24,828 nucleotides of DNA from Spirogloea muscicola (Eukaryota; Streptophyta; Zygnematophyceae; Spirogloeales; Spirogloeaceae), in the NCBI GenBank assembly GCA_009602725.1, contig WELB01000016.1:1127642-1152469 (forward strand), read 5' to 3'. Shown in pieces: positions 3,154 to 24,613 of the stretch (positions within the stretch are counted from its first letter, which is position 1; the number at the start of each line of letters is the position of its first letter). The translations under genes were made by a program, and so were the position numbers. The notes below the pieces were generated by a model, which saw only the letters and a program-made list of their open reading frames with translations, was not told the origin of the DNA and made no database searches.

Positions 3154-3403
3154 GGCTGGGTCATACACATTTGGGGTTGATTCAAGCTAAGGATGGAGGA
3201 CCACTTCACATCCTTTCTTCCTGGGCTGGGTCATACACTTCTGTGTGGGATTCACGCTAAGGATTGAGGACCACTTCTCCTCCTCTCTCTCTCTTCATTT
3301 CTCTCTCTTTCTCTCTCTCTTCCCTCTCTCTCGATGCAACAACATCGACCGCTCATCCAATGCGGACGACAACAACATCGACCGCTCATCAAATGCGGAC
3401 GAC
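3154..3403. repeat. 70-bp tandem pair, CT microsatellite, 33-bp pair
   Basis: Two imperfect 70-bp units begin GGCTGGGTCATACAC at 3154 and 3224. They run into a (CT)n/(TCTC)n microsatellite at about 3275-3332. This is followed by two 33-bp units (3338-3370 and 3371-3403) built on AACAACATCGACCGCTCATC. The segment occupies the place of the CAACGA-rich variable part of L in the younger copies (10440-10550), so it is probably local expansion inside the element's leader. Confidence 0.7.
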
Positions 3404-3699
3404 AACAACAATGGAGCGACTACAAGGGCCCACGCACGGCGCCAACCGGCCGAAGACCGTTCAAGGCGCACGAGAGAAGCCCATCTGCAAGCCCCTCAAC
3501 CACCAACAAGACCGTCAAGGTGGGCGCTATTGAAGCGGTGGCGGGGCAACGTGGAACAAGATGAAGTGCTCGCCCATCGAAAGAGAAGGCGCGCGGGGCG
3601 CATGGAATGAAAGGGAGGCCAAGTCAAGCCAATACATTGTTCAGGCAGAGTCTAGGGCAAAGTAAACAAGGCCACATACTACGGAGGCCGAGGCCTAAA

Positions 3700-4020
3700 A
3701 CTAAGGTGCCTACGGTGACATTAGTACCCACACACAAATAGTACCACCCACAAACAAATCCGACAAGCTAACTTGGGGAGCTGGAGCGCCGCCACGAAAG
3801 CTGGAGGCCTGACTTAGAGCGCGCCCTGCATGTTGATGAAGAGCCAATGCTTGCGAGCGCTGCAAACTAAGCGAGAGCCCATAGAGGAGAGGGGCTGGCA
3901 AAGCCAGCCCAAAAAGAATGGACAATGTCCAAAGCCCAAAAGAAGAGGTGCCGAAAAAGGACAAGACTATCAAACACGACAACGCACAAGGGGGGCTCAG
4001 TACCCGCGAGTGAGCACGGA
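3700..4020 (-). mobile_element. two abutting LINE-like 3' tails
   Basis: Minus strand, upstream first: a coding end reading ...LTRGY with TGA at 3997-3999; a 3' UTR containing the perfect hairpin GGGCTGGC-3 nt-GCCAGCCC (arms 3892-3899 and 3903-3910); then directly the related peptide SLSLQRSQALALHQHAGRAL at about 3795-3890. The same UTR, with TTGGACATTGTCCATTC before the hairpin, occurs at 7241-7360 on the plus strand. The block sits inside the L segment of the degraded retroelement and so is a later insertion. No RT motif is present. Confidence 0.5.
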
Positions 4021-4850
4021 ACGGACCGGCTGAAGATGACCATTTTACGGTCGAGCCAGCCACTGAGACGGGTGACGGCCCACGACAGCCGGCCATCCAG
4101 CTTAGCCAACCAGCGTAGCCATGGGCCGAACCTGGCCTGTCAGGCAGCGCTAGGATCTCTGCCGCGCCCGGCCCAAGTCGGGGCGAGCAGCCCTTGCAAA
4201 GCAGTCCGCTTTGCAAAGTTTTCCCTCCTGCCGCGAGCCACGCCTGCGCCAACGCCGCGCCATAGAAGCGTAGAGCCTAGGGCAGGAGCCGCAGCAGCTA
4301 GTAAACCTTTGCACGGACCCGCGGCGCAACTGCGAGAAGTCGTGGTGATGTGGTGAGCAGCCTCGAGTATTGTGCTGCGCATCGCAAGCTTCACTAGGCT
4401 GAGCACTAGTTCTCAGATTGCATCAGTCAGGGCTGTGCATTAAGGCCTAGTAGCACTATCATCGCTTGGCATTTACTGATCTTGCCCAAGTGATCATCTT
4501 GTGGACAAGGGACTGCACATTTGCTTGGGTGTGTGCTCTTTAATATTGCTCGCACTTCAAGATACACTTGTATGCTTGCATCGCACCATTGAAGCTGTAG
4601 ACCACGAGTCGCTTAGTGCTGAATACTAGATACAAGCACTCAGTAGACAGTTCATCGCCCTTTTACTTGCAAAACGGGCTACTTTCGTTGGGCAGCATCG
4701 TGGGAAAGACTTGCATAAGGAATGACATAACCAGAGTGATCTTCGTCCTGCTGGACAAGTACAGCTCTCATGCCGAGTTTGCTCCAGTCTGTGTGCAGCT
4801 GAAACCAGGACGACGCAAAAGAAGAACTTGTTGCCTGCCTTGCACTGTGA

Positions 4851-7998: not shown

Positions 7999-8341
7999 CT
8001 GCAGTTGTCGACCAATGCAACACAGACGGATCCACAAGGCAGAGAAGGTGCTTCAGACAGGTGCTATGCCCTTGCAAACTTCTCCACGACCTCCTTCAGA
8101 ACAGTGCTTTGTAAAGGCATGAATTTACTCGCTTGCAGAGCTAGCAACCACTCGCACAACACGTCACTTGGGCTTATGTGCGAAGTGGACCTAGTAAATC
8201 AGTAGTGCTTTGGTGGCAAAATTTTCTTCACGCCAATCTTTCTTCACACAATTTCTTCTATTACGTAGCACGAAGTCTGTCAAATAGTATCGTCTCTTCT
8301 GAGTCAGTCAAGTATTACCGTGACGAGCTACTGCCAGGATT

Positions 8342-9546
8342 TCACGAGATGGTGGCAACAGCATTCCTGCTCTGAATAAGCAGAGAAGTGGGACAGACCA
8401 CAAAGTCTAGAGGTGGGAGAAGGCTCTGGCCCGTGGACGAGAACATACAGTTGAGGAACGACTTCCCTGCAGCAGCATTGCAAACGGTGCACCGGGGTTG
8501 TGGTGTCACAATCTTGACGGCCACCCAAATGTACACGAAAGAAACCATGGGGCACACGCCAGAGCCAGGCTGGAAGATGGTGTTGACTCCAGACCAAGTC
8601 ACAGTAGCAGATGGCAGAGAGACGGGGAGAGCGCCAGCGATGGAGCAGGCGTTGCCCTTGAGTTCTGACCAGCCTTGTTGTTGGTTGCCGCAATGCGGAT
8701 GTTGCCGGTGACAACTGTGACGGCTACTGGAGTTGCCAGGAAGGTGATAGAGCCAGGGTGAGTGAATACATAGGCGGCAGCACCACAGGAGCCGGAGGCC
8801 GTCACCAGCCTGGGTGAGCCCCAGGTCACAACCTCGCCAACCTTGGAAGCGGGCCAAGGGCGGGCACCCCCAGCAGTGCAGAGGTTGAGGTAGGTCGTAA
8901 ATACGAGTGTAGTGCGGGCGGAGTCGGAGCGAGCGACCGGGACGGTGATGGTACCCCCCCCGATGGCGGCTAAGAAGCCGGAGTACAGGTCTGCCAGGCT
9001 CTGGCAAGACAGAGTCAAATTCGTGGCACCGTTGTATAGCACCGAGAACGACAGCAGGCCCTGCGGCACCGTCAACTTGCTGAAGCCAAGGCTAGTCTCT
9101 TGGGCCGTCGTCATGGCAGCAACTGACGCAGCAACCAGATACTGCCTGGCCTTGAGGCCGGTGTATCCAGCAGCTGAGCTGCCAGAGCAGGAGGGACACG
9201 CAATGTGGTGTCTCAGTATCAAGTGGTACACGGAGTTCCGGAGCGTGTAAATGTTGGCGACGGCATGCATCACTCCTTGAGAGCAGCAGGTCAACAAAGG
9301 CAGCGCGTCGATTTGGAGCGAAGCTTGCAAGAGAGTGCAACAACAGTTCCAGGAGAAGGCAAGCGAGTTACAATGACATTCGGATACCCGACCGAAGCGT
9401 AACAGCCGAAGGAGCCAGAGGAGTTGGTTCTTCAGGATTTGCGCAGAAGTGGCGCCGCCAAAGACGGTGGTGTTGGTGGCTGAGCAGGCGGCGGAGGCGG
9501 GGGCAGAGAGGGCGAGGACGAGCGCGGCGGCGAGGAGGAAAGCCAT
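8342..9546 (-). pseudogene. PstS-like secreted protein, decayed copy
   Basis: This is the paralogue of the gene at 22893-24108. The signal peptide (MAFLLAAALVLALSAPASA), the intron position (9179-9387) and the anion-binding motif region (RSDSARTT) are recognisable. Two small deletions break it. In exon 1, near 9426-9432, eight bases present in the other copy are missing. In exon 2, near 8656, one base is missing and shifts the frame so that the last third reads in another phase. The motif Gly that follows the Ala in the intact copy (SAGTT) is Arg here. Unless an unusual splice rescues it, this copy cannot make the full protein. Confidence 0.75.
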
Positions 9547-9999
9547 GGCTGCTCAAGCGGGTAGGATTTGCAGGGGCCTGCGGTGTGGGACTGGAAGCAC
9601 GGCGGTGAGCTGCACTCGATTCTTATGGGGCTCGAGAGCAGCCTCTTCCCGGGCCATCCGCCCCGAGGTGGACTTTCGTCACTTAATGCCCCTACAGGGC
9701 GGTTGGGATGAACGGGAAGCTCTCTGGAGGTCGAGGCGGCTGTTAAAGGCCAGCCCAGAAGGAAGATCGCAAAGGGAGTGGGGCAAACCAAAGTAGCATC
9801 CTCATCTGCAGGCATGCGAAGGCCAGCGAGCGACACTTGGCCCTGCTTGTAGTAGGATACGCAAGACGCCCGAGATGCCCGAGATGCCGATACCGTGCCC
9901 CGCCCAGGCCGCCCAAGGGCGAGCCCACGGCCGACGACGATCGGGAGCCGGCCCCACAAGCGGACTATACCAATGGCCCGTTCAGGGTGGAGCAGGGCG

Positions 10000-10003
10000 G
10001 CTC
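10000..10003. repeat. left target-site duplication of the outer element (GCTC)
   Basis: GCTC at 10000-10003 is repeated at 20041-20044, exactly outside the TGTC...GACA termini of the outer element. The duplicated gene copy shows the empty-site equivalent GCAGGGCGGCT near 24602-24613. Confidence 0.7.
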
Positions 10004-10205
10004 TGTCATGCGCGAGGGCGTCTATGCGAGATGGCGTCGATTGACTGATATAAAGACAAAATGCTGACGTATACGAGCTTTGTGATACACCAACCAAACA
10101 AAAAAGTGGTTGCGTTGGCCATGCCAACAAGAAGGCAGTCCGTCGAGAGGCCATCGTCACCAATCGTTCATCTCACGCAATGTCAACAAGGAAAACTTAG
10201 AGGTC
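10004..10205 (+). repeat. S segment, 3' end of the outer element
   Basis: About 200 bp starting TGTCATGCGCGAGGGCGTC. It is repeated in the same orientation at 14545-14745 and partly inverted at 15860-15961; its outermost ~40 bp recurs inverted at 5411-5450. Relative to the coding direction of each element it is the 3' terminal region, downstream of the poly-G tract where that is preserved. Confidence 0.8.
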
Positions 10206-10249
10206 CAAATTACTATTACTACGAACATGCAGCAGTATCTTGATTATGG

Positions 10250-10309
10250 GGAAAAACAATGCAGAATGGAATGATCAAAACCTCGACCGGATCCTGCATT
10301 GCTGAAGCC
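10250..10309 (-). pseudogene. methyltransferase fragment after the insertion point (motif IV-V)
   Basis: Minus-strand reading continues the outer methyltransferase immediately after the catalytic loop: FSNAGSGRGFDH, then a frame disruption relative to the inner copy (which reads FDHPNSALF at 15235-15205). The AGCC at 10306-10309 is the left target duplication; its partner is 15962-15965. Joining the two sides restores the reading order, showing that the inner element interrupted this gene. Confidence 0.7.
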
Positions 10310-11335
10310 TATCGTGCAATATTCCGTCGACTGCTTATTTGTGTCGATCTGACTAGGACAGTTGACCTGGCTTGACACGCGTCCTACGGCTGAGTCACGC
10401 GTTCCAGATGTGAAACGAGTCGGGGATGGAAAACCTCTTCCAGCCGGAAATCAAGGCAACCGCTCAACCAACTCAACCCCAACGACAACGCGACTCCAAC
10501 GCGACGGAGCAACGACGACAACATGGCGGAACGACAACGACACGCGACGGCAAGGGCCCGAGCCCACGCGCGACGACCACCATCCGATTGTGGAACGGAC
10601 GGCTGGAGGTCACCACCCCGGGAGACTGATTGCCCCTGGGTCATGTGGTTGGCCCACACCAAGCCCGTCACCCAACTTAGCCAACCAACGTCGCCACAGC
10701 CAAACCTGGCCTATTAGGCAGCGTTCGGATCTTCACGATGCCCTGCCGGCCAGGGCCAGCGGCCGCCGCAGCGCCCGTCCCGAGCCCAAGCGGGCGCCCC
10801 AAGCCGAGCAGTCCGCTCGGCAAGCTTCACCCTCCTGCCCACGCCTGCGCCACCCGCGCCGGTGTCTGCGCCTGCGCCCAGAGAGCGTAGCGCGTAGAGC
10901 ATACGGCAGACGGCCCCGCGCCTGCGTGCACGCCTGCGCCCAGAGAGCGTAGCGCGTAGAGCACACGGCGCACGGCAGCTAGTGAACCTTAGCCTGGACC
11001 CGCGTACGACTGCGTGAAGTCTACGTGACACTGCGGTAAGCAGTGCAAATCTTGCCATATCTTTATATTGAGGCAAGGTGCTGCACTCAGCGCCTGCGTG
11101 TATATATTTGCATGCTTGCATTGGTGCATTGGTTACAAAAGCCGCGGATCGGACTTTGGTTACGAAAGCCGCGGGTCGGACTTTGGTTACGAAAGCCGCG
11201 GATTGGACTTTGGTTACAAAAGCCGCGGATCGAACTTCAGTTACAAAAGCCGAGCTCGAGTCACAAGATTGAGATCGTCACATATCGCTTCGCTTGCCGA
11301 GCGGACTCTTATTCATCTTGCCAGACTCGAGTGAC
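10310..11335 (+). repeat. L segment, leader of the inner element
   Basis: About 1 kb of non-coding leader upstream of gag. It includes CAACGACAACG-rich sequence (10470-10550), the hairpin GCCGAGC-5 nt-GCTCGGC (10803-10821), a ~64-bp tandem pair with GAGAGCGTAGCGCGTAGAGC (10877-10965), A/T-rich TATATTT at 11100-11107, and a 27-bp tandem array (11135-11260). Other copies are at 13560-14542 (inverted), 15346-15860 (inverted, partial), 19030-20040 (inverted), and diverged at 3074-4360. Open frames inside L are not conserved as proteins. Confidence 0.8.
11135..11260 (+). repeat. 27-bp tandem array in L
   Basis: Four to five units of GGTTACRAAAGCCGCGGRTC plus GGACTTT. The same array, with its own substitutions, is in the inverted L copies at 13612-13725, 15405-15515 and 19095-19210. 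It lies just upstream of gag and downstream of a TATA-like stretch. A regulatory or packaging role is inference. Confidence 0.75.
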
Positions 11336-11391
11336 CTTCTTTTGTGACTTCTTGAAGTGCTTTACTCTCTTCTTTGTTGAGACAACATTGT

Positions 11392-13107
11392 ATGAGATTG
11401 CGGTCTGGAAAACTCGTCAATCTGGACGAGTCATTCAGCACAGATCTGCCTGATACTAGTCGTTCTACTTTTGTGTTGCCTGAACCTCCTGCTGTTGCAG
11501 ATACTCCAACGACCGGAGATTCCCAGCAGCTGGCAGAAGTGAAGGCCAAACGCCCTCGCTTCGGACGTACACACATGGCTTCAGGTGATCGTCTGAGATT
11601 CTCGGGCATGCCTGACGGGTCTTCTTTGGAAGAAGTCAGAGACCATTTCGTGGCAGAAATCTGTGAGTTAGACGTACAGGGTTTCGTGGTTGGTCGAGGT
11701 CAGAGAATGACCTTGTTTGCCAAATATTTTAATGGTGCTGCCGGAGCTGTGTACAGAAGGACTAAACAAGACGTGTTAGACCGTAGAACACCTCTATCCT
11801 TGACGGCTACGTCAGCAGAGATCGCGGCAGGTCCTAGTTTGATTGAGGATCCTGTTGAAGAGATGATCAAACGCATGTCTAAACAGTTCCCGGAAAACGT
11901 CATGCATTACAAACAAGAGCTGTATAAGTTCAGACGTCTTGAAGGTGAAACGGTGACCGCATGCTATCATCGGTACACCACTCTTATAGAGAAGTCGCGG
12001 ACAAGCATCAGTTCGCAAGACTTAGCTAATCAATTCCTTCGGGTTGTGTCTGGTAAAGCCATGCACAATGTTTTGATTTTATTGTTGATGCAGACGCGGC
12101 AACTCCACAAACCTCATTTTGACTTGGCCGATGTTTTCCAGGTCATGCTTGAGAAGGAGTCTGCAGACTTCGCACTTAAAAATCTTGATGATCGTTTCTC
12201 AGGTTCATCAACTCCTGACAAGGACAGGAGGGACGAGAAAGACACTGTCGTTAAGAAATCTTCATCAGGTAACACCAGAGCTCATGTGGCTCTACCTGAT
12301 ATGTCTCACACAATGACTCAAGCCTCTAAGCAGTATCAACAGCGTCCTTCTATCACTTGCCACAATTGTGGTAAGCCTGGTCATATAAATAGGAACTGTG
12401 CTGCATTACACCAGACTGCTGGTGCCACATGTGGTTTTTGTGGAAGGTTGGGTCATAGTGATACACAATGTTGGAAGAAGAATCCAGAGAAACTTCCGGC
12501 TCAGTTTCGAGCTAAGAACGGGAGTGGCCAGGGTCCTTCTAAAGATCACGCCGTTCATTCTGACCAATCTAATATGAATAGACTGGAACAGGATGTTGCA
12601 CGGCTGACACAGAAATTGGCAATTTATGAGGCCGAGGCTAAGACTCGAGCCAAGTTGGCTGCAGCTGCAGTTGCTCAAGCGACCCACGACGATGTCGAAG
12701 AAGACCTCGATGGGACAGCAAACGAGTATGATTACTCACACCTTGCTGTAATTGCTGCCACTGCCCCTGAACCAACTGTTTTCAGCAGGAATCCCCTCAA
12801 GAGGGGCGAAACTAACTTGCAACAGGCAGCACGTGCAGGGAATGCACGTTACCCTGCAACTTTTAAAGTCAAGGACATTACATTGACTAATGAGCCTCGT
12901 CTACCTAAAGCTCGAATAGCTTCAGATGATGTGGTTGCTACAGATTGTCAGTTGTCCAAGGACGTTCTTCTGACTAAGCTGCATAGAACACCGATGTTCA
13001 GCTTACATGAGTTAGGTTGGACAAAGGAGAAATTGTGTACTACACTACTGAGTAGCTCTGGTACTGCAACTCTCCTATGGTTCAAGTTGCAGCTGTTTCG
13101 ACAATGA
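11392..13107 (+). pseudogene. gag: retroelement Gag, inner copy (two CCHC zinc knuckles)
   Basis: Capsid/nucleocapsid protein of the retroelement, which packages element RNA. I take the ATG at 11392 (MRLRSGKLVNLDE); the frame is open slightly further upstream, but only through TTG codons. The N-terminal ~300 residues are Gag-like (RLEGETVTACYHRYTTLIEK is a typical capsid stretch). Two knuckles follow: CHNCGKPGHINRNC (from residue ~323) and CGFCGRLGHSDTQC (from ~347). A probable coiled coil comes next (MNRLEQDVARLTQKLAIYEA). The frame ends early: compared with the copy at 16872-18909 a one-base loss near 13065 shifts it out of the Gag-protease frame. In the other copy Gag and protease share one frame. 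Confidence 0.85.
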
Positions 13108-13139
13108 ATTCTGCTTAAGCGAATCCAGATCCACCTTGT

Positions 13140-13554
13140 TCTGGTTCTCTTCCATGCAGATCAGCAGAAGAGAGGCAGAAGAAATTCTCGTCAGCTACTT
13201 TCCTCGACAATGTCGAAGGCATGCTGACCGTGGAAGGTACCGCACCACCTTCTGTACTCATTGACACAGGTACCCAGCCAGTACTCCTAGGTCGCAGCAT
13301 GATTGATAAATTGCACCTGCAAACTGGAGATATTGTCCGCAGCAACTTGAAAATCAAGACTGCAGCTGGTGGGACTGATAGCATCATAGGGTTAACAAGG
13401 AAACCCCTTTGCATTACCCTATATGCTGATACACCTTCGAAGAAGACATCATCAAATAACAGACATTGTCTGTTATTTGTATGATCGCAAAAGCAGACAC
13501 CTACGATGTCTTGTTAGGAACCAAGTTCCTAGTTCCGCTAGGATTTGGAATGGA
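13140..13554 (+). pseudogene. retropepsin fragment, inner copy
   Basis: Aspartic protease that would process Gag. The active-site motif is VLIDTGTQPVLLG, followed by a KIKTAAGGT flap-like segment (13221-13380). It is separated from gag by the frameshift near 13065. The frame is broken again near 13480, after a 12-bp palindrome (13454-13478) absent from the other copy. It stops at 13554 just after LLGTKFLVPLGFG, where sequence jumps into an inverted L segment. The intact order in the other copy continues into the methyltransferase. Confidence 0.75.
13454..13478. repeat. 12-bp palindrome inserted in protease
   Basis: AAATAACAGACA, one base, TGTCTGTTATTT. The outer copy has only the right arm at the matching place (near 16840), so the left arm appears to be a templated inverted duplication. 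Confidence 0.7.
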
Positions 13555-13559
13555 GTTTT

Positions 13560-14542
13560 AGCGAACCGATATGTGACGATCTCAATCTTGTGACTCGAGC
13601 TCGGCTTTTGTAACTTAAGTTCGATCCGCGGCTTTTGTAACCAAAGTCCGATCCGCGGCTTTCGTAACCAAAGTCCGACCCGCGGCTTTCGTAACCAAAG
13701 TCCGATCCGCGGCTTTTGTAACCAATGCACCAATGCAAGCATGCAAATATATACACGCAGGCGCTGAGTGCAGCACCTTGCCTCAATATAAAGATATGGC
13801 AAGATTTGCACTGCTTACCGCAGTGTCACGTAGACTTCACGCAGTCGTACGCGGGTCCAGGCTAAGGTTCACTAGCTGCCGTCCGCCGTGTGCTCTACGC
13901 GCTACGCTCTCTGGGCGCAGGCGTGCACGCAGGCGCGGGGCCGTCTGCCGTATGCTCTACGCGCTACGTTCTCTGGGCGCAGGCGCAGACACCGGCGCGG
14001 GTGGCGCAGGCGTGGGCAGGAGGGTGAAGCTTGCTGAGCGGACTGCTCGGCTTGGGGCGCCCGCTTGGGCTCGGGACGGGCGCTGCGGCGGCCGCTGGCC
14101 CTGGCCGGCAGGGCATCGTGAAGATCCGAACGCTGCCTAATAGGCCAGGTTTGGCTGTGGCGACGTTGGATGGCTAAGTTGGGTGACGGGCTTGGTGTGG
14201 GCCAACCACATGGCCCAGGGGCAATCAGTCCCCGGGTGGTGACCTCCAGCCGTCCGTTCCACAATCGGATGGTGGTCGTCGCGCGTGGGCTCGGGCCCTT
14301 GCCGTCGCGTTGTCGTTGTCGTTCCGCCATATTGTCGTCGTTGCTCCGTCGCGTTGGAGTCGCGTTGTCGTTGGGGTTGAGTTGGTTGAGCGGTTGCCTT
14401 GATTTCCGGCTGGAAGAGGTTTTCCATCCCCGACTCGTTCACATCTGGAACGCGTGACTCAGCCGTAGGACGCGTGTCAAGCCAGGTCAACTGTCCTAGT
14501 CAGATCGACACAAATAAGCAGTCGACGGAATATCGCACGACA
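13560..14542 (-). repeat. inverted L segment, complete at its outer end
   Basis: Reverse complement of 10310-11300 with few differences. Its outer end (CGCACGACA at 14542) is the authentic element end, followed by GC and then the S end of another unit. Its inner end joins the protease at 13554-13560. With the copy at 10310 it forms ~1-kb inverted repeats around the inner gag-protease fragment. Confidence 0.8.
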
Positions 14543-14544
14543 GC

Positions 14545-14745
14545 TGTCATGCGCGAGGGCGTCTATGCGATATGGCGTCGATTGGCTGATATAAAGACAA
14601 ATGCTGACGTATACGAGCTTTGTGATACACCAACCAATTAAGAAAGTGGTTGCGTTGGCCATGCCAACAAGAAGGCAGTCCGTCAGGAGGCCATCGTCAC
14701 CAATCGTTTATCTCAAGCAATGTCAACAAGGAAAAATTAGAGGTC
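14545..14745 (+). repeat. S segment inside the inner element
   Basis: Direct repeat of 10004-10205. For the minus-strand PHD unit it is the 3' terminal region: PHD end, run of ten C (G on the minus strand) at 14766-14775, then S, ending CATGACA at 14545. Confidence 0.8.
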
Positions 14746-15111
14746 GTCATTTGAACCTGTGACTTCCCCCCCCCCAACTGAGAGTCCTGACACAGGATGA
14801 GAAGTTGGGTGAGTATCTGAGCACTTGACACAAAACCAGTCATCATGTGGTATAGAAGTCATGGGTGGAGTGAGGCAGTGGATATGCCAACCTTTGTTAC
14901 AATGAGAACACAAAAGCATAGCAGCTGCTTGATCAGCTTGTTGACAGACTTTACAACACAGATGCTCAGAAACCCATTGTTTAGTTGTATCGATGGTGGT
15001 GTCTATGTTGCTAAGATGGCAAGGAGCAATGGTTTGCACATGATCGCTAATGATGCGAATGCATGAGCCACGAAGCTTAACAACACCGGTAGGATGTTCT
15101 CCACCACCTGT
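14737..15111 (-). pseudogene. retroelement PHD finger (C4HC3) after integrase-like tail
   Basis: PHD fingers bind histone H3 tails; in a retroelement one could steer integration or recruit methylation to chromatin (inference). Visible C4HC3 ligands: CKVC, CSHC, H and C in GWHIHCLTPP, and CVKC after DDWF; the domain spans 15-cysteine-rich ~45 residues near 14955-14821. It is preceded by IAPCHLSNID. A one-base frame slip near 15095 separates it from the upstream integrase-tail segment; reading across the slip gives a continuous basic segment. The start is not determinable because this was part of a longer polyprotein. Confidence 0.75.
14766..14815 (-). promoter_or_regulatory. poly-G tract, candidate polypurine tract
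   Basis: Minus strand: CACCCAACTTCTCATCCTGT, a short spacer, then ten G (14766-14775) and AAG. The same arrangement with nine G is at 5165-5235 in the degraded copy. Its place just upstream of the 3' terminal region suits a plus-strand priming polypurine tract. In this copy it also falls within the last codons of the PHD frame. Confidence 0.4.
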
Positions 15112-15345
15112 AAAATCAGTGGTCCGGTTGACGAATCTAAGGCGTCATGGGGCTTGACTTTGACATATACAAAGTCACCCACATCAATAGTTTTATTATT
15201 CGAAAACAATGCAGAGTTTGGATGATCAAATTCTCGACCTGAACCTGCATTGCTAAAGCCTTCGCAGGGAAAGCCAGCAATGACTAGGTCAATTTCGGGA
15301 AGATTACTGAGATGATCTGGAGTAATGGCTCTGATGAGTCCGATT
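15096..15345 (-). pseudogene. methyltransferase motif IV-V fragment fused to integrase C-terminus-like segment
   Basis: Minus strand: ITPDHLSNLPEIDLVIAGFP, then CEGFSNAG (catalytic Pro-Cys loop, motif IV) and FDHPNSALF (motif V-like). Directly after comes DVGDFVYVKVKP and a TGPLILQVVE segment, which resembles the small beta-barrel domain at the C-terminus of Ty3/gypsy-type integrases. The methyltransferase is cut at both sides: its N-terminal part is replaced by L at 15346 and its C-terminal part is missing. RT, RNase H and integrase core would be expected between the two parts, so an internal deletion is likely. Confidence 0.65.
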
Positions 15346-15860
15346 GGCAAGCGAAGCGATATGTGACGATCTCAATCTTGTGACTCGAGCTCTGCTTTTG
15401 TAACTTAAGTTCGATCCGCGGCTTTCGTAACCAAAGTCCGATCCGCGGCTTTCGTAACCAAAGTCCGATCCGCGGCTTTCGTAAGCAAAGTCCGATCCGC
15501 GGCTTTTGTAACCAATGCACCAATGCAAGCATGCAAATATATACACGCAGGCGCTGAGTGCAGCACCTTGCCTCAATATAAAGATATGGCAATATTTGCA
15601 CTGCTTACCGCAGTGTCACGTAGACTTCACGCAGTCGTACGCGGGTCCAGGCTAAGGTTCACTAGCTGCCGTCCGCCGTGTGCTCTACGCGCTACGCTCT
15701 CTGGGCGCAGGCGTGGACGCAGGCGCGGGGCCGTCTGCCGTATGCTCTACGCGCTACGCTCTCTGGGCGCAGGCGCAGACACCGGCGCGGGTGGCGCAGG
15801 CGTGGGCAGGAGGGTGAAGCTTGCCGAGCGGACTGCTCGGCTTGGGGCGCCCGCTTGGGC
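15346..15860 (-). repeat. partial inverted L segment
   Basis: The gag-proximal half of L, nearly identical to 13560-14070. It fuses to methyltransferase coding sequence at 15346 and to the truncated S segment at 15860 through a short CTT microhomology. Confidence 0.8.
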
Positions 15861-15961
15861 TTTCTTATTTGGTTGGTGTATCACAAAGCTCGTATACGTC
15901 AGCATTTGTCTTTATATCAGCCAATCGACGCCATCTCGCATAGACGCCCTCGCGCATGACA
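15860..15961 (-). repeat. truncated S segment, right end of the inner element
   Basis: The outer ~100 bp of S, ending CGCGCATGACA at 15961 next to the AGCC target duplication. Confidence 0.8.
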
Positions 15962-15965
15962 AGCC
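15962..15965. repeat. right target-site duplication of the inner element (AGCC)
   Basis: Matches AGCC at 10306-10309. The uninterrupted methyltransferase fragment near 15255-15270 reads AAAGCCTTCGCAGG, agreeing with the reconstructed empty site. Confidence 0.75.
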
Positions 15966-16772
15966 TTCACAAGGAAAGCCAGCTATGACTAGGTCGATTT
16001 CAGGGAGTTTGCTGAGATAGTCTGGCGTAATGTCTCTGATGTCGCCGGGCAATGTTGTATCCCAGCCCTCAAAGGTCGCATTTGAAAGGAGATGCGAGTA
16101 CCTCTCCTTCAAAATGTGGATGTGGTGAGAAGCTGCCTCACGGGCCTCCGGATCGTTGTCAACGTATATGTATCTGCCAATCTGGTACCGGCTGCGGAGG
16201 AGACCTGCGAGACCAGTTGCAGAGCCTGCAAATAACTCCAACACGGTAAGTCCTTCCTCAGGAGTATCGAAAGGAATGACCCCTTCGTAGAAGCGTTGAT
16301 CTTGGGCTGGTCCTGCATTGGTCCCAGGATTATACAAACTAGATTCAAAAACTTTAGAAGACCAGGCCTCCTTCACCCGAAGAGACGCTGTACGGCTCCA
16401 GTCTGGCAACATGGCCAGGTACTTTCTGTAGTTCTCCTCCACAAGCATAGCCTCAAAATCCTCTTCAGCGAAACCATCTGTCTTTAGGCATTTGCGCAAC
16501 ACAGAAGGTCCAGAGTAGTAATCCGAGATATCACTTATAGGGCCCCTCTTCCGGTGAAAGACTACCGGTGCCTCCCCTGTCCCTTTGCCTGTAACAGGTG
16601 GTAATAAGGAAACATGATCAGATAAGGCTCTCATTAGTATCTGGTATGCCAGCATGGGCTTGCAGTCCAGCGTGAGACTGTTTCTTAAGAAGGGGTAATA
16701 ACACTGTGTTAGTACCAGAATTTTTCCAGTCTGGCCTATCCCAAGCTTTGTCTGAGTAAAAATGCATACCAA
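15966..16772 (-). pseudogene. DNMT3-like C5-cytosine methyltransferase in a retroelement
   Basis: Transfers a methyl group from SAM to cytosine C5 in DNA. On the minus strand, SAM-binding motif I is VLELFAGSATGLAGL; motif II region is YIYVDNDPEAREAA; motif IV is VIAGFPCEG with the catalytic Cys codon at 15969-15971. The ~90-residue spacing from motif I to IV and the FAG-ATGL wording are closer to DNMT3-type enzymes than to DNMT1 or Dnmt2. About 120 residues of unknown function precede motif I and follow the protease. The frame is cut by the inner element right after the catalytic loop; motifs VI (ENV), VIII, target-recognition, IX and X are absent. There is a frame slip near 16690 relative to the protease. 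It cannot encode an active enzyme as it stands. Confidence 0.8.
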
Positions 16773-18909
16773 ATCCTAGCGGAACTAGGAACTTGGTTCC
16801 TAACAAAACATCATGTGTCTGCTGTTGTGATCATGCAAATAACAGACAATAATGTCCTCTTCGAAGGTATATCAGCATATAGGGTAATGCAAAGGGGTTT
16901 CCTTGTTATCCCTATGATGCTCAGTCCCACCGGCTGCAGTCTTGATTTTCATGTTGCTGCGAACAATATCTCTAGCCTGCAGGTGCAATTTTCCAATCAT
17001 GTTGCGACCCAGGAGTACTGGCTGGGCACCTGTGTCAATGAGTACGGAAGGTGTTACGGTACCTTCCACGGTCAGAATGCCTTCGGCATTGTCGAGGAAA
17101 GTAGCTGACGAGAATTTCTTCTGCCTCTCTTCCGCTGATCTGCATGGTACAGAACCAGAACAAGATAGATCTGGATTCGGTTGAGCAGGATACATGGTTG
17201 GAACGGCTGCAACTTGAACCATATGAGAATTGTCAGTACCAGAGCTATTCAGTAGTGTAGTACACAATCTCTCCTTTGTCCAACCTAAGTCATATAAGCT
17301 GAACACAGGTGTTCTATGCAGCTTAGTCAGAAGTACGTCCTTGGACAACTGGCAATCTGTAGGAACCACATTATCTGAAGCTATTTGAGCTTTAGGCAGA
17401 CGAGGCTCATTGGTCAGTGTAACTTCCTTGACTTTAAAACTTGCGGGGTAACGTGCATTCCCTGCACGTGCTGCCTGTTGCAAGTTAGTTTCGCCCCTCT
17501 TGAGAGGATTCCTGCTGTCAACAGTTGGTTCAGGAGCCGTGGCAGCAATAACAGCAAGGTGTGAGTAATCATACTCGTTTGCTGTCCCATCGAGGTCTTC
17601 TTCGACATCGTCCTGAGCGGCTTGAGCAACTGCAGCTGCAGCCAACTTGGCTCGCGTTTTAGCCTCGGCCTCATAAATAGCCAAATTCTGGGTCAGCCGT
17701 GCAACATCTTGTTCCAGTTTATTCATGTTAGATTGGTCAGTATGAACGGCGTAATCTTTGGAAGGACCCTGTCCACTCCCGTTCTTAGCTCGGAACTGAG
17801 CTGGAACTTTCTCTGGATTCTTTTTCCAGCACTGTGCATCACTGTGACCCAACCTTCCACAAAAGCCACATTTGACTCCCGCAGTCTGGAGTAATGCAGC
17901 ACAGTTCCTCTTTATGTGACCAGGCTTACCGCAGTTGTGACAAGTGATAGTAGGACGCGGTTGATACTGCTTAGAAGTCTGAGTCATTGTCTGAGACATA
18001 TCAGGTAATGCAACATGAGCTCTGGTGTTACCTGATAGAGGTTTCTTAACGAGAGTGTCTTTGTCGTCCTTCCTGTCCTTGTCAGAAGTTGACGAACCTG
18101 AGAAACGATCATCGACATTTTTAAGCGCAAAGTCTGCAGACTCCTTTTCAAGCATGACCTGGAAAACATCGGCCAGGTCAAAATGAGGTTTGTGGAGTTG
18201 CCGCGTCTGCATCAACATTAAGTTCAAAACATTGTGCATTGGCTTTATTAGACACAACCCGAAGGAATTGATTAGCTAAGTCTTGCGAACTGATGCTTGT
18301 CCGCGACTTCTCTATAAGAGTGGTGTACCGATGATAGCATGCGGTCACCGTTTCACCTTCAAGACGTCTGAACTTATACAGCTCTTGTTTGTAATGCATG
18401 ACGTTTTCCGGGAACTGTTTAGACATGCGTTTGATCATCTCTTCAACAGGATCCTCAATCAAACTAGGACCTGCCGCGATCTCTGCTGACGTAGCCGTCA
18501 AGGATAGAGGTGTTCTAAGGTCTAACACGTCTTCTTTAGTCCTTCTGTACACAGCTCCGGCAGCACCATTAAAATATTTGGCAAACAAGGTCATTCTCTG
18601 ACCTCGACCGACCACGTAACCCTGCACGTCTAACTCACAGAGTTCTGCCACGATATGGTCTCTGACTTCTTTCAATGAGGATCCGTCAGGCATGCCCGTG
18701 AATCTCGGACGATCACCTGAAGCCATGTGTGTACGTCTGATGCGAGGGCGTTTGGCTTTCAATTCTGCCGGCTGCTGGGAATCTCCGGTCGTTGGAGTAT
18801 CTGCAGCAGCAGAAGATTCGGGCAACACAAGAGTAGATCGACCAGTATCAGGCAGATCTGTGCTAACTGACTCGTCCAGATTGACAAGTTTTCCGGACCG
18901 CACTCTCAT
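16690..18909 (-). pseudogene. gag: Gag-protease, outer copy (frameshifted)
   Basis: Starts at ATG 18909 (MRVRSGKLVNLDE) and aligns along its length with the inner Gag. An extra A near 18240 (AAAGCCAATGC against AAAGCCATGC) shifts the frame; from 18257 the correct frame continues. It carries knuckles CHNCGKPGHIKRNC and CGFCGRLGHSDAQC, the coiled-coil segment, and without a stop the retropepsin motif VLIDTGAQPVLLG. Two bases missing after KIKTAAGGT shift the frame again near 16915. The protease end (LLGTKFLVPLGFGMHFYSD, RPDW) reads at 16806-16690 in another phase. Gag and protease are thus one polyprotein, followed by the methyltransferase. Confidence 0.85.
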
Positions 18910-19029
18910 ACGATGTTGTTTCAACAAACAGATTCAGCCAATCAGCAATGATAGAGCTGATGCGGTAGCCTCAGATGCAAAGCACTTCAAGAAGTCACAA
19001 AAGAAGATCGCTCGAGTCTGGCAAGATGA

Positions 19030-20040
19030 GTAGCAGTCCGCTCAGCAAGCGAAGCGGTATGTAACGAACTCAATCTTGTAACTCGGACTCGACTTTTGTG
19101 ACAGATTGTTCGAACCGCGGCTTTTGTAACTTCAGTCCGAACCGCGGCTTTTGTAACCCAGTCCGATCCGCGGCTTTTGAAACCTTAAGTCCGAACCGCG
19201 GCTTTTGGGACCCAATGCACCAATGCAAGCATGCAAGGACATACACGCAGGCACTGAGTGCAGCACCTTGCCTCAATGTAACGATATGGCAAGATTAGCA
19301 ACTGCTTATCGCAGTGTCACGTAGACTTCTCGCAGTCGTATGCAGGTCCAGGCTAAGGTTCACTAGCTGCCGTCCGCCGTATGCTCTACGCGCTACGCTC
19401 TCTGAGTGCAGGCGTGGACGCAGGCGCGGGGCCGTCTGCCGTGTACTCTACGCGCTACGCTCTCGGGGCGCAGGCGCGGACACCGGCGCGGGTGGCGCAG
19501 GCGTGGGCAGGAGGGTGAAGCTTGCCGAGCGGACTGCTCGGCTTGGGCTGCCCGCTTTGGCTTGGGTCGGGTGCTGCGGCGGCCGCTGGCCCTGGCCGGC
19601 TGGGCACTGTGAAGATCCGAGCGTTGCCTAATAGGCCAGGTTTGGCTGAGGCAACGTTGGTTGGCTAAGTTGGATGACGGACTTAGTGTGGGCCAACCAC
19701 ATGACCCAGGGGTCAATCAGTTGCGGGTGGTGAGTTTCAGTCGTTTGTTCCACGATCGGATGGTTTTCGTTGCGCGTTGGCTTGGGCTTTTGCCGTCGCG
19801 TTGTCGTTGTCGCTCCGTTGCGTTGGTGTTGCGTCGTCGTTGTTGCTCCGTCCTTGCATCGTTGGGGTTGAGTTGGTGGAGCGGTTGCCTTGACTTCAGA
19901 CTGGAAGAGGTTCCCCATCCCCGACTTGTCTCACATCTGGAACGCGTGACTCAGCCGTAGAACACACGTGTCAAGCCAGGTCATCTGTCCTAGTCAGATC
20001 GACACACACAAATAGGCAGTCGACGGGATATCGCACGACA
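19030..20040 (-). repeat. L segment, leader of the outer element
   Basis: The most diverged of the younger L copies. It begins TGTCGTGCGATATCCC at 20040 and ends near TTCGCTTGCTGAGCGGACTG before gag. It has the CAACGA-rich part (19790-19870), the GCCGAGC/GCTCGGC hairpin (19524-19542), a GAGCGTAGCGCGTAGAG tandem pair (19385-19470) and the 27-bp array (19095-19210). Confidence 0.8.
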
Positions 20041-20044
20041 GCTC
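20041..20044. repeat. right target-site duplication of the outer element (GCTC)
   Basis: Matches 10000-10003, directly outside the GACA end. Confidence 0.7.
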
Positions 20045-22560: not shown

Positions 22561-22892
22561 CTGCAATTGTCGACCAATATACACAGACGGATCCACAAAG
22601 CAAAACAGGTGCTTCAGACAGGTGCTATGCCCATGCAAACTCCTCTACGACCTCCTTCGGAACAGTCCCTTGAAAAGGCATGAGGTTACTCGCTTGCAGA
22701 GCTAGCAACCACTCGCACTTGGGCTTATATGGGAAGTGAACCTCGTAAGTCAGTAGTGCTTTGGAGGCAAAATTTTCCACACGGCAATCTTTCTTCACAC
22801 ATTTTCATCTATTACGTAGCATGAAGTCTGTTAAATAGTATCATCTCTTTTGAGTCACTCAAATATGACCTTGATCAGCTACTGCCAGGAAT

Positions 22893-24108
22893 TTACGAGA
22901 TGGTGGCAGCAGCATTCCTGTTCTGAGTAAGCAGAGAAGTGGGACAGACCACAAAGTCTAGAGGTGGGAGAAGGTTCTGTCCCGTAGACGAGTACATATA
23001 ATTGAGGAACGACTTCACTGCAGCAGCATTGCAAATGGTGCACGGGGGTTGTGGTGGCACAATCTTGACGGCCACCCAAATGTACACGAAAGAAACCATG
23101 GGGCACACGCCAGTGCCTTGCTGGAAGATGGTGTTGACTCCAGACCAAGTCGCAGTAGCAGGTGGCAGAGAGACGGGGAAAGCGCCAGTGATGGAGCAGG
23201 CGTTGCCCTTGTAGTTCTGACCAGCCTTGTTGTTGGTTGCCGCAATGCGGATGTTGCCGGTGACAACTGTGACGGCTATTGGAGTTGCCAGGTAGGTGAT
23301 GGAGCCAGGGTGTCCGAATACATAGGCGGCAGCACCACAGGAGCCGGAGGCCGTCACCAGCCTGGGTGAGCCCCAGGTCACAACCTCGCCAACCTTGGTA
23401 GCGGGCCAAGGGCGGGCACCCCCAGCAGTGCAGAGGTTGAGGTAGGTCGTAAATACGAATGTAGTGCCGGCAGAGTCGGAGCGAGCGACCGGGACGGTGA
23501 TGTTACCCCCCCCAATGGCGGCTAAGAAGCCGGAGTACAGGTCTGCCAGGCTCTGGCAAGACAGAGTCAAATTTGTGGCACCGTTGTATAGCACCGAGAA
23601 CGACAGCAGGCCCTGCGGCACCGTCAACTTGCTGAAGCCAAGGCTAGCCTCTTGGGCGACCGTCATGGCAGCAACTGAGGCAACAACCAGATACTGCCTG
23701 GCCTTGAGGCCGGTGTACCCAGCACCTGAGCTGCCAGAGCAGGAGGGACACGCAATGTGGCGTCTCAATGTCAATAGATACACGGAGTTTCCTAGCATGT
23801 AAATAATGGCAACGGTATGCATCACTCCGTGAAAGTAGCAGGTCAACGGAGGCAATACATTGTTCTGGAGCAGAAGCTCGCAAGGAAGTGCAACGAGAGT
23901 GCCAGGAGATGGCAAGTGGGCTACTGTGACATTTGCCGTACCCGACCGAAGCGTAGCAGCCGAAGGAGCCGTAAGCGTTGAGGAGTTGGTTCTCCAATAC
24001 AACCGCAGCACTGGAGCCACCGAAGACGGTGGTGCCGGCGGGCGAGCAAGCGGCGGAGGCGGGGGCAGAGAGGCCGAGGACGAGCATGGCGGCGAGGAGG
24101 AATGTCAT
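22893..24108 (-). CDS. secreted PstS-like phosphate-binding-fold protein, two exons
   Basis: Predicted extracellular or wall protein with the fold of the periplasmic phosphate-binding protein PstS (and eukaryotic DING proteins). Exon 1 is 24108-23942, intron 23941-23731 (GTACGG...GGCAG, 211 bp), exon 2 is 23730-22893; the product is 334 residues, normal for PstS. Signal peptide MTFLLAAMLVLGLSAPASA, cleaved before ACS. Splicing gives a VG-GSGAGYTGLKA junction like the Gly-rich PstS loop. The best motif is VARSDSAGTTFVFTTYL, matching the PstS R-S-D-x-S-G-T anion loop. Later blocks GSCGAAAYVF, PGSITYL, CPMVSFVYIWV and FLNYMYSSTGQ follow PstS order. Cysteines are numerous. The splice sites are my prediction; phosphate as ligand is inference. 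Confidence 0.75.
23731..23941 (-). other. predicted intron of the PstS-like gene
   Basis: Donor GG|GTACGG, acceptor CTCTGGCAG|CTCAGG, phase 2. The same sites occur in the decayed copy (9179-9387, donor GG|GTATCC). Without removal, the conserved N-terminal and C-terminal parts are in different frames. Confidence 0.6.
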
Positions 24109-24613
24109 GGCTGCTCAAGTCGGTAGGAGTCGCAGGGGCCTGCGGTGTGGGACTGGAAGCACGGCGGTCAGCTGCACTCGATCTTATGGGGCTCGAGAGC
24201 AGCCTCTTCCGGGGCCCTCCGCCTCGAGGTGGCAATCCGTCACTCAATGCCCCTACAGGGCGGTAGGGATGAACGAGGAGCTCTCTGGAGGTCGAGGCGG
24301 CCGTGAAAGGCCAGCCCAGAAGGAAGGTCAAACAGGGAGTAGGGGGAGTCCAGGGTAGCATCCTCATCCGCAGGAATTGCGAAAGGCCAGCGAGCGACGC
24401 GTGGCCCTGCTTGTAGGCGGATACCCAAGACGCCCGAGATGCCCTAGATGCCCGAGATGCCGATACCGTGTCCCGCCCAGGCCGACCAAAGGCGGGCCCA
24501 CGGCCGGCGACGATCGGGAGCTGGCCTCACAAGCGGACTAATGAATAAAGTAAGACGCTTCCAGTAGACTATACTCGTAGGCCCAGGCCCGGTCAGGGTG
24601 GAGCAGGGCGGCT

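What the first reader, a model, noticed from the sequence alone, without database searches (positions are those of the whole stretch)
14737..18909. Retroelement carrying its own DNA methyltransferase and a PHD chromatin reader
Gag (two CCHC knuckles), retropepsin and a DNMT3-like methyltransferase follow one another on the minus strand. In the sister copy the methyltransferase fragment is followed by an integrase-tail-like segment and a C4HC3 PHD finger. Retrotransposon capture of cytosine methyltransferases has been reported in dinoflagellates and charophytes. Here the enzyme sits right after the protease, and a PHD reader lies at the other end of the polyprotein, in what looks like a chlorophyte. 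A writer plus reader in one element could let it methylate its own copies or direct insertion to marked chromatin.
Basis: partly seen in the sequence, partly recalled or inferred. Interest (0 to 1): 0.88.

Follow-up and report, generated by a model that had tools for sequence, protein, structure and literature searches.

The report
Algal retrotransposon with methyltransferase and PHD
A family of jumping genes in a green alga related to land plants carries its own DNA-methylating enzyme and a histone-reader domain, with the enzyme set before what looks like a leaky stop codon, so it may mark its own new copies; the copies in this window are broken and nested.

Summary
The window holds two nested, dead copies, each flanked by a 4-bp target duplication. 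Better-preserved copies elsewhere in the genome show the layout: Gag-retropepsin-DNMT3-like methyltransferase, an in-frame stop, then RT-RNaseH-integrase-PHD. The methyltransferase lies inside the element, and the pairs of copies that can be estimated show purifying selection. The stop, present in 12 of 13 scored copies, sits in a known readthrough context (CAA next in 13 of 13, CAAYYA in 12 of 13). A contig from another organism, misfiled in a cyanobacterial bin, repeats order, stop and context. Nine insertions end in a left part A and a right part B with a 4-bp duplication; no LTRs were found in the five simple copies tested. Some have an extra B-GC-A junction, as described for the charophyte KnitGypsy-Dnmt3. 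The host looks like a streptophyte alga (GRAS, LEAFY), not a chlorophyte, so this is a new variant of a known kind. Apparently new: the slot between protease and RT, the leaky stop, the PHD-tailed integrase, and a second slot (RNaseH-integrase) in other elements, chlorophyte ones included. Methylation, histone reading and readthrough are inferred.

The parts
10004..20040 (-). Outer element E1 with E2 nested in it; termini TGTC at 20040 and GACA at 10004
   Evidence: GAGC on both sides (20041-20044 and 10000-10003)
18979..20040 (-). E1 left terminal part A (right limit approximate)
   Evidence: aligns at 88% with the A part of genome copy C134, starts TGTCGTGCGATATCCCGTCG
18178..18933 (-). Gag, first piece
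   Evidence: ORF of 251 aa; within a stretch 92% identical in DNA to C134 gag-protease-methyltransferase
17460..18275 (-). Gag, second piece in another frame (end approximate), with zinc knuckles at about 17948-17901 and 17876-17820
   Evidence: PF00098 E 9.5e-6, over cut-off, for the first knuckle; sub-cut-off matches for the second
16911..17069 (-). Retropepsin (LIDTGAQP)
   Evidence: PF13975 20.3 bits, below the 28.2 cut-off; homologous to the retropepsin of genome copies
15962..16775 (-). E1 DNMT3-like methyltransferase up to motif IV (GFPCEG), then cut by E2
   Evidence: PF00145 22.3 v 22 bits for the ORF 16775-15912; 63.6% aa identity to the C2 methyltransferase over 176 aa
10310..15961 (+). 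Nested element E2 in motif IV of the E1 methyltransferase; internally rearranged; its A part starts TATC instead of TGTC
   Evidence: TSD AGCC at 10306-10309 and 15962-15965
11356..13107 (+). E2 gag with zinc knuckle
   Evidence: ORF of 583 aa; PF00098 E 2.1e-4, 21.7 v 20.8 bits
13119..13484 (+). E2 retropepsin
   Evidence: PF13975 E 0.0012, below cut-off
15198..15350 (-). Second methyltransferase fragment (motif IV region), inside E2 and inverted
   Evidence: PF00145 E 3.8e-9
15130..15203 (-). Integrase C-terminal (GDFVYVKVK) tail before the PHD (limits approximate)
   Evidence: 15195-14749 aligns at 75.6% with C2 13425-13872, the integrase tail and PHD
14821..14955 (-). PHD finger
   Evidence: PF00628 E 4.5e-10
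14545..14736 (-). B part after the PHD, followed by GC and a further A part (14542 to 13560): the B-GC-A junction
   Evidence...CGCATGACA GC TGTCGTGCG...
10004..10309 (-). Distal remnant of E1: methyltransferase piece after the E2 site, and terminal B part ending GACA

Best explanation
It is a nested, decayed pair of copies of a Ty3/Gypsy-like retrotransposon family of a streptophyte alga. The layout seen in the best-preserved copy is A-[Gag-protease-methyltransferase]-stop-[RT-RNaseH-integrase-PHD]-B. Shown here: the layout, the conserved stop context, the 4-bp target duplications, conserved methyltransferase motifs, and low dN/dS in methyltransferase and PHD. Inferred: ribosomes mostly stop after the methyltransferase and sometimes read through, so the methyltransferase is made in Gag-like amounts, is packed in the particle and methylates the element's cDNA; the PHD on integrase binds the histone H3 tail, probably unmodified, and steers insertion; and the TGTC/GACA ends, joined as B-GC-A in a circle, are what the DDE integrase acts on.
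For: Copy C2: frames of 1411 and 1037 aa, same frame, single TAG between; Pfam order CCHC and retropepsin (both below cut-off), DNA_methylase, RVT_1, RNaseH, Integrase_H2C2, rve, PHD. Stop at the joint in 12 of 13 scored copies (8 TAG, 4 TGA; C134 has TAC); CAA next in 13 of 13, CAAYYA in 12 of 13, C341 having CAACGA (L010, L012 and C21 were read from the printed sequence because the script's register was off; C2 and C328 are close relatives). Control: 7 of 127 CAA codons in the open frames are followed by YYA. L046: same order, TAG CAATCA. Profile of five genome methyltransferases plus P0001 v PDB: the first 29 of 57 rows are DNMT3A/B/C, best 5.9e-18; then HaeIII/HhaI, DRM2 1.4e-8, DNMT2 4e-4. 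Methyltransferase dN/dS 0.06-0.23 in the 12 of 66 pairs with a finite estimate, 5 of them with dS below 1.5; PHD 0.05-0.08 in 3 of 6 pairs. PHD downstream of 12 of 71 methyltransferase places v 0.15 expected. TSD matches for 6 of 8 A starts (1.29 expected), plus C30, E1, E2.
Against: No activity, expression or methylation data. The single C2 sequence matched HhaI (1.6e-6) and not DNMT3 in PDB; the DNMT3 match of the profile rests mainly on motifs IV-VIII. CpG decay between copies does not clearly show methylation: C>T at CG exceeds CHH in 6 of 6 pairs, but transversions at CG are raised in 5 of 6; CpG o/e is below the flank in 4 of 7 copies and higher inside than outside in the window (0.91 v 0.75). 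P0065, P0078 and P0132 run from methyltransferase into RT without a stop; C134 has lost it; in C361 the frame behind the methyltransferase ends TGA GGAGTT with no such context and no RT match was found there. In C21 RT is in another frame. 54 of 66 methyltransferase pairs are saturated and several rows carry stops. A structure model of a relative was poor (pLDDT 46). The PHD's nearest solved relatives are mixed.
Confidence: 0.6

Rival explanations
1. The methyltransferase acts on the host: it methylates rival elements or helps keep the host genome methylated, or serves against DNA viruses; cDNA methylation is a side effect.
For: Proposals of this kind exist for retrotransposon methylases (PMC6338049, passages; PMC5890265, parts and passages). 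C157 keeps Gag-protease-methyltransferase and integrase-PHD frames while RT and RNaseH are missing.
Against: Low dN/dS and the place beside protease fit a role in the element's own cycle; nothing here shows host effects.
Confidence: 0.15
2. The methyltransferase is a nucleic-acid-binding structural passenger whose catalysis is not needed.
For: The tested SymbioLINE DNMT did not methylate DNA in yeast (PMC5890265, passage).
Against: Residues of motifs I, IV (PC), VI (ENV), VIII (RxR) and X (motif labels recalled) are invariant in the six-sequence alignment A2; low dN/dS.
Confidence: 0.15
3. The conserved stop is not leaky: RT-integrase is made from its own start or from a second transcript.
For: Many relatives have RT-integrase-PHD proteins of about the length of ORF2 with unknown upstream sequence.
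Against: Same frame on both sides in C2 and L046; context conserved at nucleotide level across diverged copies.
Confidence: 0.15
4. The B-GC-A junctions and the circular L046 contig are assembly or tandem-insertion artefacts, and the element has ordinary LTRs that were missed.
For: L046 is circular only by a 127-base end overlap, which assemblers can make from repeats.
Against: Simple copies end at A and B with TSDs and no end repeat found; the junction is GACA-GC-TGTC in C341, C328, the window, L046 and L051.
Confidence: 0.15

Closest known systems
KnitGypsy-Dnmt3 of Klebsormidium nitens (de Mendoza 2018, PMC5890265; parts 1 and 2 of 7 and passages seen)
   Same: Gypsy domain composition, DNMT3-related unpermuted methyltransferase under purifying selection, repeat arrangement like DIRS, charophyte (streptophyte) host
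   Different: There the DNMT is described as part of the Pol ORF; the word PHD does not occur in the main text, and I saw no mention of a stop between methyltransferase and RT in what I read. The figure is not held, so its domain order is unknown to me. Sequence relation was not tested.
SymbioDIRS-Dnmt3 and SymbioLINE-Dnmt of Symbiodinium (same paper)
   Same: Retrotransposons with DNMTs; split repeats in the DIRS ones
   Different: Tyrosine recombinase or LINE machinery; dinoflagellate hosts
PHD-tailed Gypsy Pol elements with methyltransferase between RNaseH and integrase, e.g. Haematococcus lacustris P0098 and Chrzof1 (Chromochloris, recalled) P0125 (found here)
   Same: Integrase-PHD fusion and a related methyltransferase
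   Different: Methyltransferase in another slot; its sequences form their own clade (97/100)
Chromoviruses (Gypsy with integrase chromodomain; PMC3605345, start of abstract in a listing)
   Same: Reader domain at the integrase C-terminus
   Different: Chromodomain instead of PHD; methyltransferase not mentioned there
Ginger1-9_HM DNA transposon (PMC2836005, passages)
   Same: PHD behind a Gypsy-type integrase
   Different: DNA transposon with Ulp1

Membership tests
Ty3/Gypsy | Retropepsin, RT, RNaseH, DDE integrase in the order PR-RT-RH-IN | tested here: met
   C2, (retropepsin below the Pfam cut-off)
Ty3/Gypsy | Direct LTRs at both ends | tested here: not met
   C2, C134, C38, C59, C157: A to B with TSDs, no repeat joining the two ends in a self-comparison. 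C30 has the same ends but was not self-compared.
Ty3/Gypsy | Short fixed TSD made by integrase | tested here: met
   4 bp in C2, C134, C38, C59, C157, C341, C30, E1, E2; not found for C351, C174 and an outer A start in C59
DIRS/PAT | Split direct repeats A-coding-B-A-B | tested here: inconclusive
   Complete in C341 (with a 0.46-kb insertion in it); C328 shows B-GC-A and the start of another B, its left A not found; absent from the simple copies
DIRS/PAT | Tyrosine recombinase | tested here: not met
   No such domain in the 10 proteins; integrase is of the rve type
KnitGypsy-Dnmt3 | Gypsy polyprotein with DNMT3-related methyltransferase in a charophyte | tested here: met
KnitGypsy-Dnmt3 | Sequence descent from or with the Klebsormidium element | not tested
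DNMT3 | Closest to DNMT3 among solved C5 methyltransferases, motifs not permuted | tested here: met
   Profile; the single sequence matched HhaI best
DNMT3 | De novo cytosine methylation | not testable with these tools
   no assay
Leaky stop of the CARYYA type | Stop followed by CARYYA, frame open on both sides | tested here: met
   12 of 13 copies with stop, 12 of 13 with CAAYYA; open on both sides in C2 and L046. CARYYA as readthrough signal: passage of PMC3441728.
Leaky stop of the CARYYA type | Readthrough product | not testable with these tools
   no expression data

The most novel reading that the evidence does not exclude
The element carries a split version of the DNMT3 logic: a DNMT3-type writer made in Gag-like excess through a leaky stop, and a PHD reader of unmodified H3 on its integrase. 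It pre-methylates its cDNA and inserts where H3K4 is unmethylated, so new copies are born silent and harmless. It also inserts as a circle joined at a B-GC-A junction by a DDE integrase, leaving copies without LTRs.
Probability: 0.2. Interest if true: 0.9.

Novelty: new variant of a known kind. Interest (0 to 1): 0.7.

Why it matters
It widens a curiosity (retrotransposons with DNMTs in Symbiodinium and Klebsormidium) into a green-algal lineage in which a DNA-methylation writer and a probable histone reader travel together, with the writer in two different polyprotein slots. The leaky stop makes a concrete, testable statement about how much methyltransferase is made relative to RT. Copies without LTRs would be missed by LTR finders.

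Tried and rejected
Chlorophyte host: set aside because of GRAS (92 matches) and the LEAFY C-terminal domain (3 matches); that these mark streptophytes is recalled. Pherophorin domain: none, but that search had no positive control. Host by rbcL: no match in the assembly. Spirogloea muscicola is a guess from recalled facts, not a result.

Sister copy as an independent neighbour, and 14737-18909 as one element: replaced by the nested picture with two TSDs.

Chance or non-DNA methyltransferase: rejected. TAG read as sense: unlikely, since C2 has one TAG in about 2450 codons and four copies have TGA at the same place.

CpG-decay test: inconclusive; the upper ratio of 3.6 in my note was wrong, the range is 1.2-2.8. 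Structure of P0001 from 15 sequences: pLDDT 46, not used. Viral contigs: no confirmed relatives. Related RTs without methyltransferase in this genome could not be counted (tool not answering). A tRNA scan of fetched loci for a primer-binding partner gave nothing. My note of 0.05 expected TSD matches per A start was too low; one search gives 0.08-0.22 each. My note that L051 lacks the methyltransferase goes too far: only 0.2 kb before its RT is held.
Full report
What is in the window. On the minus strand Gag with two zinc knuckles, retropepsin and a C5 methyltransferase follow one another, and further down a second methyltransferase fragment is followed by an integrase tail and a PHD finger. 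The stretch is a nest of two insertions. The outer copy E1 runs on the minus strand from 20040 to 10004 and is flanked by GAGC. A plus-strand copy E2 (10310-15961) sits in motif IV of the E1 methyltransferase and is flanked by AGCC, four bases of the methyltransferase gene duplicated on insertion. The second methyltransferase fragment and the PHD lie inverted inside E2, which is itself rearranged. The window copies are thus dead, and the finding's coordinates cross an element boundary.

The element elsewhere in the genome. The window is part of a 153-Mb assembly with at least 71 places matching PF00145. The 20 best were cut out as loci, and all 20 (one is C2 itself) match the methyltransferase of copy C2. 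Ten 20-kb regions were read. In C2 both frames are open: 1411 aa with Gag, retropepsin and methyltransferase, one TAG, then in the same frame 1037 aa with RT, RNaseH, Integrase_H2C2, rve and PHD; the Gag knuckle and retropepsin matches are below Pfam cut-offs. Of 71 methyltransferase places, 12 (the window's own included) have a PHD match 0.2-5 kb downstream on the same strand against 0.15 expected; the PHD search scored 150 of 198 candidates, so this is a lower bound.

The leaky stop. Thirteen copies could be scored at the methyltransferase/RT joint. Twelve have a stop (8 TAG, 4 TGA, no TAA); C134 has TAC. All 13 have CAA next and 12 have CAAYYA; C341 has CAACGA. Three of them (L010, L012, C21) were read by eye because the script's register was off; C21 has RT in another frame; C2 and C328 are 95.8% alike. 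Over the open frames of these elements 7 of 127 CAA codons are followed by YYA. The codon after CAA codes for Leu, Pro, Arg or Ser but always ends in A, so the nucleotide context seems to be what is kept. CARYYA behind a leaky stop is known; a passage of PMC3441728 says so and reports a fungal Copia element without it. Contig L046, filed under a cyanobacterial MAG (AVDCRST, which I take for soil crust), has Gag-protease-methyltransferase, TAG CAATCA, then RT-RNaseH-integrase-PHD in one frame, at 34% methyltransferase and 51% best-segment Pol identity to the query. Against this, P0065, P0078 and P0132 run from methyltransferase into RT without a stop; relatives L049 and L050, where four methyltransferase queries found nothing, have protease and RT in one frame; and in C361 the frame behind the methyltransferase ends in TGA without the context, no RT being found there.

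The methyltransferase. The single C2 sequence matches HhaI best among solved structures (1.6e-6), with DRM2 at 0.16 and no DNMT3. A profile of five genome sequences and P0001 matches DNMT3A/B/C best: the first 29 of 57 rows, best E 5.9e-18; then HaeIII and HhaI, DRM2 at 1.4e-8 and DNMT2 at 4e-4. The match rests mainly on the motif IV-VIII region, with weak pieces at motifs I and X in the same order. Catalytic residues are invariant in the alignment; motif labels are recalled. dN/dS is finite in 12 of 66 pairs and lies between 0.06 and 0.23; the five with dS below 1.5 are C2-C328 0.11, C351-C134 0.11, C351-window 0.08, L014-C38 0.09 and C134-window 0.23. The other 54 are saturated, and three rows carry stops. 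The PHD gives 0.05-0.08 in 3 of 6 pairs and RT 0.06 in 1 of 3. The PHD's nearest solved relatives are CHD4, Lid, BAZ2A/B, ubi-d4, JARID1D, MLL3, ATXR5, KMT2D, WSTF, KDM5, UHRF1, PHF21A, AIRE and others. Many of these I recall as readers of the unmodified H3 tail, but not all, so its preference is open.

Ends and copies. Each copy with ends found starts with a part A (TGTCRTG...; TATC in E2) before gag and ends with a part B (...GACA); where Pol is present B follows the PHD behind a run of G. Matching 4-bp duplications were found for C2, C134, C38, C59, C157, C341, C30, E1 and E2; none for C351, C174 and a second A start in C59, and no A start was found for C48. In the counted set 6 of 8 A starts match where 1.29 are expected. 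The five simple copies self-compared have no end repeats. C341 has A-coding-B-GC-A-B; C328 shows B-GC-A and the start of a further B; the window has B-GC-A. The same junction is in L046, whose ends overlap by 127 bases as in a circle, and in L051. I read this as insertion of circles with one or two LTR equivalents by a DDE integrase. That is inference, and assembly artefacts are possible for L046. De Mendoza et al. write that KnitGypsy-Dnmt3 has the repeat structure of a DIRS element and Gypsy domains.

How far the family reaches. A search with the integrase-PHD part gave 247 hits, of which 120 were listed; 117 of these 120 carry PF00628. In the 120 plus P0002 and P0003 the methyltransferase lies between RNaseH and integrase, or directly before integrase in a fragment, in 41 (24 MT-IN, 14 RT-RH-MT-IN, 2 RH-MT-IN, 1 Gag-MT-IN), before RT in 3, and after protease in P0002, named Mesvir1. 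The first kind includes Haematococcus lacustris, a chlorophyte, and Chrzof1, which I recall as Chromochloris zofingiensis. In a tree of 66 methyltransferases the 28 rows of the RNaseH-integrase slot form one clade (97/100) apart from other labelled rows, nine genome copies another (86/67, weak), C21 and C361 lie elsewhere, and the retroelement sequences separate from 9 outgroup rows at 87/75, weak and with outgroup rows under half filled. In the integrase tree of 124 rows (quick method) the six protease-RT-slot rows fall in a clade of 41 (SH-aLRT 100) with 35 that lack a methyltransferase between RNaseH and integrase and whose upstream part is unknown. A first methyltransferase search gave 3 hits, a profile search 58, most of them unnamed JGI proteins.

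Host. Chlorophyll a/b-binding domains (68 matches), GRAS (92) and the LEAFY C-terminal domain (3) point to a streptophyte alga, by what I recall of their distribution; the pherophorin domain gave none (without positive control). An LHCII exon matches a 620-aa chain, 9vfj_2, best (two stretches), then 7xqp and 8htu, which I recall as moss, above 6kac, which I recall as Chlamydomonas. Three copies of several genes suggest a triplicated genome; Spirogloea muscicola is a recalled guess.

Does it methylate itself? Between copies C>T at CG is 1.2-2.8 times that at CHH in 6 of 6 pairs, but transversions at CG are raised as well in 5 of 6. CpG o/e of seven elements is 0.64-0.78 against 0.67-0.91 in their flanks, lower in 4 of 7, and in the window it is higher inside (0.91) than outside (0.75). 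This neither supports nor refutes self-methylation.

Known and new. DNMT-bearing Gypsy elements in charophytes are known (PMC5890265, two of seven parts and passages seen). In ten searches of the PubMed Central library (listings, and passages of six papers) I saw no report of the protease-RT slot, the leaky stop behind the methyltransferase, the PHD on the integrase of such elements, or chlorophyte elements with the methyltransferase in the other slot. Subscription papers, figures and supplements are not covered, and one review passage does mention DAM- and DCM-encoding retrotransposons in green algae in general (PMC6338049). I therefore call it a new variant of a known kind.

Noticed in passing
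window 8020-9967 and 22581-24540: A gene with a weak PBP_like_2 match (PF12849 26.3 v cut-off 27) has a second copy, 86-96% alike over pieces, on the other side of the nested insertion.
   Followed up: no
G000:C157 region, L011 and L029/L030: A copy with its own TSD keeps open Gag-protease-methyltransferase and integrase-PHD frames although RT and RNaseH are missing.
   Followed up: partly
L046-L060: Fifteen contigs filed in bacterial or archaeal MAGs encode relatives of this Pol; L046 looks circular.
   Followed up: partly
P0091, P0110, P0168: Three PHD-tailed polyproteins also carry a G-patch domain, PF01585.
   Followed up: no
G000:C21:439825 and C361:40234: These copies hold a distinct methyltransferase lineage (36-40% identity to C2) that groups weakly with Mesostigma P0002 (84/33).
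   Followed up: partly
G000 C43/C89/C183; C256/C168/C234; C37/C98/C130: LEAFY, a host-type DNMT and an LHC gene each seem to occur three times, as in a triplicated genome.
   Followed up: no
C2 region 14769-15801 (L026): Tandem repeat of about 248 bp period, with related sequence at 3266-4582 of the same region on the other side of the element.
   Followed up: no
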